NCBI RefSeq assembly: GCF_000485595.1
Contig: NW_014577786.1
Span: 160,844 to 186,869 of the forward strand
DNA length: 26,026 nucleotides
Source of the DNA: Priapulus caudatus
Taxonomy: Eukaryota > Priapulida > Priapulimorpha > Priapulimorphida > Priapulidae
Direction of reading: 5' to 3'
Part shown: positions 6,201 through 15,200 of the stretch, piece after piece
Numbering within the stretch: position 1 is the stretch's first letter
How the letters are laid out: each line of letters begins with the position of its first letter
Position numbers and translations under genes: made by a program
Notes under the pieces: model-generated
The model's input: the letters and a program-made list of their open reading frames with translations, nothing else
What the model was told of the DNA's origin: nothing
Databases searched by the model: none

Positions 6201-9200
6201 TGTGCTTCCCCACCCATGCATGTATGTCTGTGCGCCCTTCCCCACCCATGCATGTATGTCTGTGCTTCCCCACCCATGCATGTATGTCTGTGCGCTCTTC
6301 CCCACCCATGCATGTATGTCTGTGCGCTCTTCCCCACCCATCGCATGTAGTGTTGCTGTGCACCTTCCTCCACGCGCATGCATGTATGTCCTGTGCGCCC
6401 CTTCCCCACCCATGCATGTATGCTGTACACCCTTCCCACCCATGCCATGTATGTCTGATGTGCTCTCCCACCCGCACGCGTTCCATGCAATGTAGTCTGT
6501 AACAACCCTTCCCACCCATGCATGTATGTCTGTGTGCTCTTCCCCACCCATGCATGTATGTCTGTGCGCCCTTCCCCACCCATGCATGTATGTCTGTGCG
6601 CCCTTCCCCACCCATGCATGTATGTCTGTGCGCCCTTCCCCACCACATGGCATGTATCTGTGCTCCCACCCATGCATTATGTCTGTGCTTCCCGCCACCC
6701 ATGCATGTATGTCTGTGCGCCCTTCCCACCCATCGCATTATGTCTGTGCTTCCCCACCCAGGCATAATATGCCTGTGCTCCCGCACCCATGCATGTAATT
6801 CTGTACACGCCTTCCCACCCATGCATGTATGTCTGTGCTGTCGCCACCCATGCATGTATGTCTGTACACCCTTCCCCACCATGCTAGTATTCTGTGTGGC
6901 TCTTCCCACACCCATGCATGTATGTCTGTGCGCCCTTCCCCACCCATGCATGTATGTCTGTGGTGCTCTTCCCCACCCATGCATGTTATGTCTGTACGCC
7001 CTCGCCCACCCCATGCATGTATGTCTGTGCGCCATTCCCCACCTCATCATGTATGTCTGCGCCTTCCACATGCATTAGTGTCTGTACACCCTTCCCCAAC
7101 CCCACATGCATGATGTCTGTGTGCTCTTCCCCACCCATAGCATGTATTCTGTGCACCCTTCCCCCACTCCCATGCAATATATGTCTGTACGCCCTTCCCA
7201 CCCATGCATGATGTCTTGTACGCTTTCCCCACCCATGCATGTAGTCTGTAACGCCCTTCCCACACCATAGCATGTATGTCTGTGCTTCCCCACCATGCAG
7301 ATGATTCTGCTCCCCACCCATGCAATGTATGTCTGTGCACCCTTCCGCCCACCCATTGCATGGTAATGTCCTGTGCCCTTCCCCACCCAATGCATAGTAG
7401 TTGTACGCTCTTCCCCACCCCATGCATGTATGTCTGTACGCTCTTCCCACCCATGCAATGTAGTCTGTGCACCCTCCCCACCCATGCATGTATGTCTATG
7501 CGCTCTCCGCCACCACCATGCATGTATGTCTGTGCTTCCCACCGGATGCATTGGTAAATGTCTGTGCACCCTCCCCACCATGCATGTATGTCTTGCGCCC
7601 TTCCCACCCATGCATGTATGTCTGTACCTCTTCCGCCACCCATGCATTATGTCGTACGCTCTACCCCACCATGCATGTTATGTCTGTGCGCCTTCCCACC
7701 CATGCATGTATTTTCTGTGCTTCCCCACCATGCATGTATTCTGTGCGCTCTTCCCCACCCATGCATGTAATGTCTGTACGCCCTCGCCACCCCATGTATG
7801 TATAGTTCTGTACGCCTTCCCCACCCCACTCGCATGTATGTCTGTACGCTCTTCCCCTACCCCACTCGCATGTATGTCTGTACTCTTCCCCACCCCACTG
7901 GCGCACAGACATACATGCATTCCCCACCCATGCATGTATGTCTGTGCACCCTTCCCCACCCATGCATGTATGTCTGTGCTTCCCCACCCATGCATGTATG
8001 TCTGTCGCTCTTCCCCACCCATGCATGTATGTCTGTGCTTCCCCACCCATGCATGTATGTNAGATCAGGTGAGGGGGAGAACATCATGCATTGCCACACA
8101 GGTGAAGGGGGAGGTTACCATCATTGGGCATGCGCAACACAGTGAGGGGGCTATCATCATGGCATCGCCACACAGGTAGGGGGAGGCTACATCATGGGCA
8201 TGCCAACACAGGGTGAGGGGGGGTAGGCTACATCGATGGGCGATGCACACAGGTGACGGAGGTTAGCATCATGGGCATGCCATCACAGGTGAGGGAGCTC
8301 TACATCATGGTCATGCCACACCCACCCCACGCCGGTGACCGGGGAGGACTACATCATTGGCCATGCCACACAGGTGAGGGGGGTTACATCGATGCATGGC
8401 CCACACAGGTGAGGGGAGCTACTATCATGGGGCAGCACACAGGTGAGGGGTGTACATCATTGGTCATGTTGACACAGGTGATGGCGGGCAGCCCGCGGTA
8501 TACCATCATGGGACACTCCACGGAGTCAGTGAGGGAGAGGGCGTAACAGCGAGTGCATTGCGGGATCGCCAACGCAAGGTGACGGGGGGAGCTACATCTC
8601 ATGGGGCATGCCACACGAGGTGAGCGGGGTTACATCATGGGCATGCCACACAAGGTGAGAGGCTACAGTCAATGGATGCCACACACGGTGAGGGAGTTAC
8701 ATCATGAGCATCCCACACAGGTAAGGGGAGAGGTACATTCATCGGCATGGCCACACAGGTGAGGGGCTACATCATGCAATGGCCACACAGGTGAGTGAGA
8801 GGTTACATCATGCATGACACACAGGTGAGGGGGTACATGCAATGGGCAATGCCACACAGGTGAGGGAAGAGGTTACATTCATGGGCATGCCACACAGGTG
8901 AGGCGGGAGGCTACATCAATGGGCATGCCACAGCAAGGTGAGGGAGGTTACATCATTCGGGCATGCCACACAGGTGAGTGGGGAGGTTACATCATGGCAT
9001 AGCCACAGAGGTGAGGGGGAGGGTTTACTATCAAATGGGCATGCCACAAACAGGTAGGGGGAAGTCAATCATGGCATGCCACAATCAGGTAAGGGGGTTA
9101 CATCATTGGGCATGCCCGCACAGCAGGGTAAGGGCCTACATTCATCGGCATGCCTCACACAGGTTGAGGGGAGCCTACATGCATGCGGCATGCGCACCAA

Positions 9201-12200: not shown

Positions 12201-15200
12201 GTGAGGGAGCTACATCATGGCATGCCACAATCAGGTGAGGGGCGAGGCTTACATATGGGCATTCACACAGGTGAGGGGGAGGCTTACATCAATGGGATGC
12301 CACACAGGTGAGGGGAGGCTACATCATGGCATTGCCATCACAGGTGAGGGGGAGGCTACATCAATGGGGCATGCCAACAGCAGGTGAGGGGCTACATCAT
12401 GGGCATGCAACAGCAGGTGAGGGAGCTACATTATGGCATGCCACACAGGTGAGGGGGAGGCTAGCATCATGGCATGCACACACAGGTGAGGTGGTTAGCA
12501 CATGGGCATGCCACACAGGTGAGGGGGAGGCTACATCATGCGGGCATGCCACACAGGTGAGGGGATGCTACATCATGGCGATCCACACAGGTGAGGGGGA
12601 AGGCTACATCATGGGCATCCAACACAGGTGAGGGGAGGCTACATCATGGGCAATGCCGAACAGGCAGGTGGAGGGGTTATGCATCAGGCATGCCACACAG
12701 GTGAGGGGGCTACATCATGGGCATGCCACACAGGTGAGGGGTCTAAGGCGGAACACGCACGACGCTGCCTTTCTATAGCTGTCAAGGGAATTGAGTTGAG
12801 GAAGAACGAATTTCTGTATCTAACAACAGTATCTTCTCATGTACTAACGCTCGCAGGGGTACGATAGAACCACTGATAGAGCTACGCCCTCGGGCAGATT
12901 GTTGGCTGTCGATATCGTAAATTCTAATTCGTACGATTGTCTTCTTCGCAGAGGGCGCTTGAACGTGTTGGCTAACGTTTCGCGGAAGCCTCTCGAGCAC
13001 ATTTTCTCCCAGTTTGAAGCTATTACTGGCAGAGATGATGTAAGTGTGTGGTTGAAGTCGTGATGAATTCTACATCACGTCTACAACTGTATCCTCCATT
13101 TATGGTCTTTATTGTTGTAAATCCTCAACTTTCAACTCATATTTAGCAGATTATGTTGGTAGGTAGGTAGTGGATGGCGAGGTAGATACAAATACTTGCT
13201 TAGTTATACTGTCTGTTATTGTTTATGATGTATTACTTGGCTGGCTAGATAAAAATTGTTTCTTGCTTGGGCTCATAGGGTCTATGTCCCCCAGGGTACT
13301 ATTGGAGGGTACCCTGGTAACAATCTGATATGGTTAGGGTTAGGGTTAGGATTGGGGAGTAGGCGTAGGCGACTCCCTAGACTCGTTAGTGGAGTAGGCG
13401 AGGTACGGTCCGGCATATTAGATAGTACCTGGGTACGTTCCGATATATCAAACCGTACCCAGGGTACCCTCCGATAGTACCCTGGGGGACATAGACCCTC
13501 TCAGCGTTAGTGGTCACACTTTTCGTTATTGTCTGTAATGTATTATGTGGATAGCTGGCTAGTTACAGGCACTAGCTTAGGTACACTGTCTGTTATTGTC
13601 TGTAATGCATTATTTTCTAATGTATTATGTGGATAGCTAGCTAGATACAGTTACTTGCTTAGTTATTCTGTCTGTTACTGTCTGTAATGTATTATTTTGT
13701 ATTATGTTTTGACTGCTAGCTAGATACTGTTACTTGCTTAGTTATACTGTCTGCATCCTTAAATGCATTATTTTGTGATATATTTAGGGGTCGGGAGACG
13801 TGAAGTATCATCTTGGTTGCTCGACGGTGCGACGCAATCACGCGACGAACAAGAACATCCATCTCGCAGTCGTTGCTAACCCCTCGCATCTCGAAGGTAA
13901 TGTAGCTTGATCTGATGGATGCTTGCGATTCCGGACTCCAGTTTGCGTTTGTTCATGCCGCGCAGGCATACGGATTGTTAGCGAATTAAAGGAAGTAACT
14001 CGTAGTGAAATTACAAAATTAAATTAATTACGAATCACAGATTATCGAATATTTAAAAAAAAGAAGATGCTTTGGGTGCATTTGTTTTGGGCGGATCATA
14101 TGATCCTGCGAAACGTGAACCTTTGGAAGTGATTTTGCATTTGTTCAAGATCAAGTGAACAAAATATATATATAAAAAAGAAAGAAAAAAAGAACAGGAT
14201 CAAGTGAAATTTTTGGCAAAATGTGTGTCGCGTATCAAAACCACGTCACTGCGGCTTTTATTTGACCTTGACCTTGACCTTGACCTTGACCTTGATCATA
14301 TTTCCCTTCTGCTCTATAACTCGGCCCCTAATTGACCTAGCGTGATCGTTAATTTGCTGCGTAGCTGATAAAGCAGCCATGTTAAATACCTAAATGGTGA
14401 AAGTAGTGGCGGCTTGATGAACGCATTTTATGAAACTGTCTTTGCATTTATTTGTCAAGCTGTGAACCCGGTGGTACAAGGGAAGACGTATGCAGAACAG
14501 TTCTACCGAGGCGATAAAGACGGAACGAAGGTACGTAGTCCGAAATAGAATAACGGAAGCACCGGATAAACATGGCCGCCATTATTTATTAATCATATGC
14601 AATTCACAATATTGATTAGATAGGGTTATCGCGGATGAAGAGATGGTTTTTATCAGTGCCAGTGTGATCAAGCACTGCTCATGAATTATTGGTGAATCAT
14701 GAGCATACAGCGTGGCCCATAGATGCATATATCATGTTCACATTATATATGCATCTAGTTGTATGAACTAGAGAATTCATCCAGAATATTCCTAACTTTC
14801 CTTGTGATGTAATGTGTCAGTTTAGTTAGACCAAGTGTGTGTAGATTTCAGCATTTTGTTTAGTTAAAGGGGCTTTTATTTATATGAATCTGATCACGTA
14901 TTGAAGTGAAAACTCCCAAAACTGTCCCCAGTTACCCACCACTATCCATACTGTACATTGCAAATTTTAAAGACAAATGTTTTGATTGGTTTGATATCGA
15001 GCAATCAGCTATAATAAAATGAATATATTTTAACAGAAAGTGTGCTAACAGCTGAAGTAGTGTTATTTTCTAAAAGAAAAGATTAGAATTCATTCAAAAG
15101 CTACGCTCGATCGATCCGTCTTGTGAATTAGAAGCTCGTGCCGTGTTATTGATCGGCTGTTATCGATGATGTACATGTATGCGGTGATTGATTCCCGCTC

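What the first reader, a model, noticed from the sequence alone, without database searches (positions are those of the whole stretch)
8062..12746. A 4.7-kb minisatellite made from the OGDH active-site exon end plus its 5' splice site
Seen: each 33- or 36-bp unit reads TAC ATC ATG GGC ATG CCA CAC AG followed by GTGAGG, and the exon at 12952 starts A GGG CGC TTG. Splicing from a unit gives [16 protein letters not shown] in correct phase, the conserved OGDH motif. About 130 copies of a usable donor therefore stand in tandem in one pre-mRNA. Both unit lengths are multiples of three, and every clean unit carries TGA just after the donor in the exon frame. Inference: only the first donor after the intact exon body gives functional mRNA, while use of later donors would retain TGA and favour decay. 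The array could act as a U1 decoy, a splicing-efficiency dial or a regulated poison region for a key TCA enzyme.
Basis: partly seen in the sequence, partly recalled or inferred. Interest (0 to 1): 0.9.

Follow-up and report, generated by a model that had tools for sequence, protein, structure and literature searches.

The report
Splice-donor minisatellite in an OGDH gene
In an animal's 2-oxoglutarate dehydrogenase gene, the last few codons of an exon and the splice signal behind them are repeated more than a hundred times in a row; this is a very long example of a repeat type already described in lancelets and in the human ABCA7 gene, and it is more likely a by-product than a built switch.

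Summary
The array is real in the assembly: 128 complete units of about 33/36 bp plus a partial one at 8062-12743. The clean unit reads TAC ATC ATG GGC ATG CCA CAC AG|GTGAGG; joined to the exon at 12952 it gives [17 protein letters not shown] in phase, so it descends from an OGDH exon end plus its 5' splice site.

Three corrections. (1) The only N in the window (8061) touches the array's left edge, and about 100 OGDH residues (7wgr 84-183), of which the unit supplies only the last few, are absent from the window. The "intact exon" with the first donor is not assembled; true length is unknown. (2) Much variation is insertion-rich noise (357 insertions, 112 deletions, 119 substitutions); 71 donors are exact CAGGTGAGG. 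(3) TGA after each donor is automatic for a GTGA donor at a phase-2 intron.

The kind is known: amphioxus "mirages" (PMC3087553) and the human ABCA7 exon-18 donor VNTR (PMC5954066). Likely history: the boundary duplicated, then expanded; the exon-proximal donor is used and the rest are intronic. A length-dependent brake on OGDH has a precedent in ABCA7 but is untested here.

The parts
8062..12743 (+). Donor-spanning minisatellite: a partial unit and 128 complete units of about 36/33 bp; unit = 23 nt of exon (TACATCATGGGCATGCCACACAG) + 13 or 10 nt of intron (GTGAGGGGG(AGG)C)
   Evidence: TRF; cyclic alignment
12711..12743 (+). Last unit of the array, running into the remaining intron sequence
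   Evidence: sequence
12744..12951 (+). Remainder of the intron (208 bases), ending in tcttcttcgcag
12952..13039 (+). Next OGDH exon (A GGG CGC TTG..., GRLNVLANV...), donor GATGTAAGT
   Evidence: tblastn; boundaries; donor
8061..8061 (.). Single N, the only one in the window, between two different arrays. The missing OGDH residues most likely lie here
   Evidence: missing segment; that it is an assembly junction is inferred
4270..8060 (+). Different 32-bp minisatellite in the same assembled intron, noisy (250 deletions, 219 substitutions, 218 insertions against one unit variant, an A-rich run included)
1573..1673 (+). Last OGDH exon before the missing stretch ([33 protein letters not shown])
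169..279 (+). Upstream OGDH exon ([19 protein letters not shown]); 3' limit uncertain
   Evidence: 169-225
18206..18257 (+). Diverged second copy of the exon-10 end and the start of its intron (exon about 17746-17845): a small boundary duplication in the same gene
   Evidence: score 40, above all 3,360 non-cognate comparisons (maximum 35)
20278..20322 (+). Likely second copy of the exon-13 end, followed by GTGAGT ([19 protein letters not shown] by eye), downstream of the exon at about 20068-20189
   Evidence: weak as DNA (score 25; 3.5% of non-cognate comparisons reach it); aligns to the paralogue's exon end and donor (score 43)

Best explanation
The array is a minisatellite that began as a tandem duplication across the 3' boundary of an OGDH exon (23 nt of exon, 13 nt of intron) and expanded by replication slippage or unequal exchange to at least 128 units in the assembly. 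The exon-proximal donor (in the assembly gap) joins the exon at 12952 and gives normal OGDH mRNA; all further units are removed as part of the intron. Use of a later donor, or retention, adds a TGA right after IMGMPHR, so those transcripts would be truncated and probably decayed. Shown: unit anatomy, phase, junction with the next exon, in-frame stop. Inferred: origin by slippage, use of the first donor, decay of the rest.
For: Unit and exon 12952 give the conserved OGDH motif in phase. The array runs without a break into the intron of that exon. Units vary in shared ways (AGG present or absent; C or T at the last base: 43 and 17 in long units, 42 and 17 in short ones), as minisatellites do. 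A boundary copy occurs at exon 10 of this gene (score 40) and at the exon-13 acceptor of its paralogue on C653 (score 43), above all 3,360 non-cognate comparisons; exon 13 of this gene is a weaker third case. 50% of the window is tandem repeat of period 10 or more, against 11% of 36.8 kb of the same contig outside it, 23% of the C653 and 18% of the C46 sequence fetched. In published cases regular splicing is reported to go on (amphioxus), and the exon-proximal donor is used far more than the second (ABCA7, as I read).
Against: The exon body and first donor are not in the assembly, so the first-donor step rests on precedent. No RNA data. With many equal donors, the one nearest the 3' splice site is sometimes preferred (recalled), which would make most transcripts unproductive. 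In ABCA7 splicing is far from undisturbed: skipping of the next exon is 12% in cell lines and 29-45% in brain tissue and rises with array length. Whether this gene copy is functional is not established (exon at 20794-20982 and region 22180-22334 diverge from homologues).
Confidence: 0.72

Rival explanations
1. Length-dependent brake: the donor array lowers productive OGDH splicing (donor competition, U1 titration on the transcript, slower transcription, skipping of the next exon), so allele length tunes output. (Compatible with the same origin as the best explanation.)
For: ABCA7 precedent: longer VNTR goes with lower expression and more exon-19 skipping, and a single retained unit gives a premature stop (passages of PMC5954066). 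The unit donor scores as high as the best of 11 other donors of this gene (11.28 against 4.18-11.28; exons 1, 13 and 14 left out because their donors are uncertain).
Against: No transcript or allele data; in ABCA7 the unit-retention isoform did not change with length and no effect of length on decay was seen; amphioxus mirages are reported not to interfere with regular splicing.
Confidence: 0.2
2. Array inflated or misplaced by assembly: a short true repeat copied by gap filling, or an array belonging to another copy and joined here.
For: An N at the array edge, insertion-dominated noise, more noise in the left third (15.6-17.5% of columns in the three 500-bp bins from 8.0 to 9.5 kb, 8.7-11.7% beyond), a 116-base C run and an A-rich run nearby, missing exons.
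Against: Such noise is what a raw read through a real array looks like (recalled); the array is continuous with the correct intron and exon on its right; 250-bp stretches range from 6% to 20% noise, and several adjacent units are perfect.
Confidence: 0.15
3. The gene copy is decaying and the array is a relic of relaxed selection; the paralogue on C653 supplies OGDH.
For: Exon 14 reads [13 protein letters not shown] where the C653 copy reads VCWEAQFGDF; region 22180-22334 is frameshifted; exon 13 lacks two codons and a good donor compared with the paralogue (read by eye).
Against: Exons 4-13 read open, with 39-89% identity to P0022 over the exons of 27 residues or more; the differences in exon 14 are many small indels that could be sequence noise.
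Confidence: 0.25
4. Recursive splicing: each CACACAG|GTGAGG acts as a juxtaposed acceptor and donor and the array is removed stepwise.
For: The consensus unit has AG directly before GT.
Against: No pyrimidine tract before the AG; the unit is G-rich.
Confidence: 0.01

Closest known systems
Mirages: minisatellite-like tandem repeats spanning exon-intron boundaries in amphioxus (Adh3, globins BflGb6 and BflGb9; TnC and PGBD5 also mentioned) - passages of PMC3087553 and PMC3902484 seen; the original Adh paper is not held
   Same: Unit spans an exon boundary with its splice signal; lies in a conserved gene; Adh3 units are 10-72 bp; both donor and acceptor sides occur
   Different: Here 128 or more units; the globin examples have up to 6 units of about 150 bp. 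The organism is probably not a lancelet: the best protein matches are about 70% to molluscs, insects and others, and no row of the 120 listed is named as a lancelet (many rows carry no name)
Human ABCA7 intron-18 VNTR (PMC5954066, passages)
   Same: Begins at the exon's own donor; each unit starts with a donor GT; 12 to about 427 units, up to 10.7 kb; using the second donor retains one unit and gives a premature stop
   Different: 25-bp unit whose first two bases are the donor GT, described as lying in the intron; here 23 nt of coding exon are repeated too, the unit length is a multiple of three, and the stop is the TGA in the donor, not a frameshift
Internal tandem repeats at exon-intron boundaries of human duplicated genes (PMC2812944, passages)
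   Same: Minisatellites (on average 30-bp units) that can lie at exon-intron boundaries, discussed as a source of novel introns through cryptic splice sites
   Different: About 4 repeats on average; not described in the passages as arrays of one authentic donor
Intron retention by decoy exons (listing and abstracts only; mechanism recalled)
   Same: Extra splice sites inside an intron could hold it back
   Different: A decoy exon has an acceptor as well as a donor; the units have no plausible acceptor

Membership tests
Mirage (boundary-spanning minisatellite) | Tandem units that contain both exon and intron sequence across a splice site | tested here: met
   Unit = 23 nt exon + 10/13 nt intron, in phase with the next exon
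Mirage (boundary-spanning minisatellite) | An authentic gene boundary of which the units are copies | tested here: inconclusive
   Downstream exon and intron present; the authentic exon body is missing from the window
Mirage (boundary-spanning minisatellite) | Reported property: does not interfere with regular splicing | not testable with these tools
   No RNA
Mirage (boundary-spanning minisatellite) | Reported property: length instability between alleles or in the soma | not testable with these tools
   One assembly only
ABCA7-type donor VNTR | Array starts at the exon's own 5' splice site and each unit repeats it | tested here: inconclusive
   Clean units hold CAG|GTGAGG (71 exact); the start of the array is not assembled
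ABCA7-type donor VNTR | Length correlates with expression or downstream exon skipping | not testable with these tools
   Needs individuals and RNA
2-oxoglutarate dehydrogenase E1 (OGDH) | Sequence match to OGDH across the E1 domain, better than to DHTKD1 | tested here: met
   7wgr/8i0k (OGDH) 611 bits against 290 bits for DHTKD1 chains
2-oxoglutarate dehydrogenase E1 (OGDH) | Complete coding sequence in the window | tested here: not met
   About 100 residues missing before exon 12952; downstream of 21524 only a frameshifted exon is recognised. The surroundings fetched are partly N

The most novel reading that the evidence does not exclude
A variable array of 128 or more strong 5' splice sites in an OGDH gene acts as a natural length-coded dial: each added unit adds a donor whose use truncates the protein just after IMGMPHR, so allele length sets the productive fraction of the mRNA and hence TCA-cycle flux.
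Probability: 0.12. Interest if true: 0.8.

Novelty: new member of a known kind. Interest (0 to 1): 0.45.

Why it matters
Donor-spanning repeats are a natural experiment in how the spliceosome picks one of many identical 5' splice sites. This one is extreme in number and sits in a conserved metabolic gene, where every wrong choice gives a recognisable stop. With the smaller boundary copies in the same gene and its paralogue, it suggests that mirages are not confined to lancelets and may be general in minisatellite-rich genomes, where they offer raw material for new introns. It also shows how such loci break assemblies and lose exons from gene models.

Tried and rejected
Rejected: designed poison stop. 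The TGA is a reading-frame consequence of GTGA at a phase-2 intron, so every such donor in any gene has it. Rejected: unit length as a sign of selection; 36 and 33 differ by one AGG, and intron length need not be a multiple of three. Rejected as unproven: loss of the ThDP-activating glutamate in exon 14 (role of that residue recalled), because the differences are many small indels. Relation between the 32-bp array (4270-8060) and OGDH coding sequence: I read its frames by eye only and saw none; tblastn with two OGDH proteins gave only chance-level hits there.

Led nowhere: identifying the organism (flat lists at about 70% identity, the best 120 of about 8,000 scored shown each time; one search was biased by filler and is not used). 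One search, a first null, was spoiled because neighbouring exons matched themselves; one search replaced it, masking exons and comparing between genes only. In one search, 6 of 72 boundaries (36 exons of three genes, limits of the C653 and C46 exons taken roughly from tblastn) exceed every one of 3,360 non-cognate scores: A14 acceptor, B13 acceptor, A10 donor, A2 donor, A14 donor, A11 acceptor. One search shows that the A14, A2 and A11 matches lie on the intron side only, so they are not counted as boundary copies; A10 donor and B13 acceptor span the junction, A13 donor is weak. Left out of the 72: the last frameshifted exon, two exons upstream of the window and one reverse-strand C46 exon; the last three were scanned against a shuffle null only (none above it by the set margin). 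By that laxer shuffle null further boundaries of the C653 gene scored above chance (exon 9 and exon 12 acceptor sides, exon 5, 13 and 19 donor sides); they did not exceed the maximum (exon 9, 5, 12, 13 and 19), and no boundary of the C46 gene did either. RNA folding with and without G-quadruplexes pairs adjacent units through GGCATGCC or puts the donor G-run into a quadruplex; no shuffle control was run, so nothing is built on it. The whole-genome search for the missing exons did not complete, so I cannot say whether they lie elsewhere in the assembly.
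Full report
WHAT IS THERE. Tandem Repeats Finder reports an array of period 36 at 8066-12741 with 128.3 copies. A cyclic alignment to the consensus unit, allowing AGG to be absent, splits 8062-12750 into 130 pieces: a partial first unit, 128 complete units, and a last piece that is flank. The clean 36-base unit is TACATCATGGGCATGCCACACAG GTGAGGGGGAGGC; the 33-base form lacks AGG. 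The exon at 12952 follows an acceptor (tcttcttcgcag) and begins A GGG CGC TTG. Unit plus exon translates to [37 protein letters not shown], and a returned OGDH reads [17 protein letters not shown] (P0022). In my judgement accident is excluded; I computed no probability. The last unit runs without a break into the 208 remaining bases of the intron.

WHAT GENE. A query of joined window exons matches OGDH structures (7wgr, 8i0k; 611 bits) far better than DHTKD1 (290 bits). tblastn finds OGDH exons from 169 to about 22,300. The assembly holding the window (385 Mb, 2,952 contigs, window = C726:160844-186869) also holds a second OGDH-like gene on C653, with exons out of order, and a DHTKD1-like gene on C46 (the DHTKD1 label is mine, from its divergence). 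The best protein matches of a window-only query are molluscs, insects and other animals (a bryozoan and a sea urchin among them) at about 70% (the best 120 of 7,998 scored, many without a name), so the animal is not close to any annotated species named there.

WHAT IS MISSING. In the 7wgr alignment the query jumps from residue 83 to 184. Of that stretch the window holds only what the unit encodes, the last seven residues or so; the rest of the exon that ends in YIMGMPHR, and any exon before it, was not found outside the array (tblastn to E 10). The only N in the window is at 8061, between the 32-bp array (4270-8060) and the donor array. Single Ns also occur at C653:128927 and 129997, so this looks like an assembly junction (inferred).

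NOISE. Against the consensus there are 4,213 matches, 357 insertions, 119 substitutions and 112 deletions; 34 of the substitutions are the recurrent C to T at the last base. Only 8 of 128 units are free of noise, any letter at the last base allowed. In 500-bp bins noise is 15.6-17.5% of columns from 8.0 to 9.5 kb and 8.7-11.7% beyond; in 250-bp bins it is uneven, 13% next to the N, about 20% at 8.25-8.75 kb, and 6-20% overall, so it does not rise steadily toward the N. Insertion-rich single-base noise fits unpolished long reads (recalled). The neighbouring array does not show an insertion excess (250 deletions, 219 substitutions, 218 insertions, against one unit variant and with an A-rich run included). 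Unit-level differences should not be read as biology, except the shared ones (AGG, C/T, and perhaps GTAAGG).

THE STOP AND THE PERIOD. The intron is phase 2: the exon ends CAC AG, so a donor GTGA reads AGG TGA. The stop is thus automatic, and the multiple-of-three unit length adds nothing to it. It does mean that use of any later donor, or retention, ends the protein just after IMGMPHR.

OTHER BOUNDARY COPIES. I compared 70-base pieces across 72 boundaries (36 exons of three genes) with their own surroundings, 1.2 kb each side, and with the surroundings of other genes (3,360 non-cognate comparisons, maximum 35). Six exceeded all of them. Two span a splice junction: the exon-10 donor of this gene (copy at 18206-18257, score 40) and the exon-13 acceptor of the C653 copy (copy at C653:147662, score 43; alignment, with only a few exon bases). 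The other four lie on the intron side only. The exon-13 donor of this gene has a likely second copy at about 20278-20322: weak as DNA (25; 3.5% of non-cognate scores reach it; exon side only), but that copy aligns to the paralogue's exon end with GTGAGT (score 43). So small boundary duplications accompany the large array, at one to three boundaries, not at most of them.

HOW IT PROBABLY WORKS. The donor CAGGTGAGG scores 11.28 bits on recalled weights, equal to the best of 11 other donors tested in this gene (4.18-11.28; exons 1, 13 and 14 left out). Published cases are the best guide. In amphioxus, 'mirages' are tandem repeats spanning exon-intron boundaries; they are said not to interfere with regular splicing, although many units contain splice signals that could be used as cryptic sites (PMC3087553 and PMC3902484, passages). 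In human ABCA7 a 25-bp VNTR starts at the exon-18 donor, with 12 to about 427 units. There, the isoform that retains one unit gives a premature stop and is rare (frameshift isoforms 14% and 2%, the second being, as I read it, unit retention) and did not change with length. But skipping of the next exon was 12% in cell lines and 29-45% in two brain tissues, rose with length, and expression fell with length (PMC5954066, passages). I therefore expect exon-proximal donor use, a minor one-unit-retention product that decays, and possibly an effect of length through the downstream exon. None of this was observed here.

NOVELTY. The class is known. New here are the scale combined with coding sequence in the unit, the gene, and probably the lineage. 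Nine literature searches ran over the held open-access library plus one for OGDH with minisatellite and splice (0 papers); that library is not the whole literature.

VERDICT. A well-seen and well-phased feature, an unusually large member of a known kind, with an over-read function and an unresolved assembly gap on the critical side.

Noticed in passing
window 20794-20982: Exon 14 of this OGDH copy reads [13 protein letters not shown] where the C653 copy reads VCWEAQFGDF; several small indels separate them. Either sequence noise or a decayed catalytic stretch.
   Followed up: partly
window 22180-22334: The next recognisable exon is frameshifted, probably unpolished sequence beside repeats.
   Followed up: no
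C653:125175-151847: Second OGDH-like gene with exons out of order (P0022 residues 518-603 before 347-459; C-terminal exons before middle ones), suggesting scaffolding errors.
   Followed up: partly
window 3548-3663 and 4548-4635: A run of 116 C and an A-rich run of 88 bases beside or inside minisatellites, look like read artefacts.
   Followed up: no
window 276-323: Right after the likely donor of the first exon (CTTCG|GTAACT) a 15-bp repeat, 2.9 copies at 281-323, carries GTAAC in each unit: perhaps a miniature of the same phenomenon (by eye, sequence).
   Followed up: no
window 18689-18752 and 20519-20790: Short repeats on the intron side just before the acceptors of exons 11 and 14.
   Followed up: partly
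window 15482-15781: 12-bp array GTAACCTTGGTG, 25 copies, soon after the exon ending at 15335, whose donor is also CAGGTGAGG.
   Followed up: no
window 7890-7925: A short inverted piece of the 32-bp unit inside the otherwise direct array, followed by about 120 cleaner bases up to the N (by eye, sequence).
   Followed up: no
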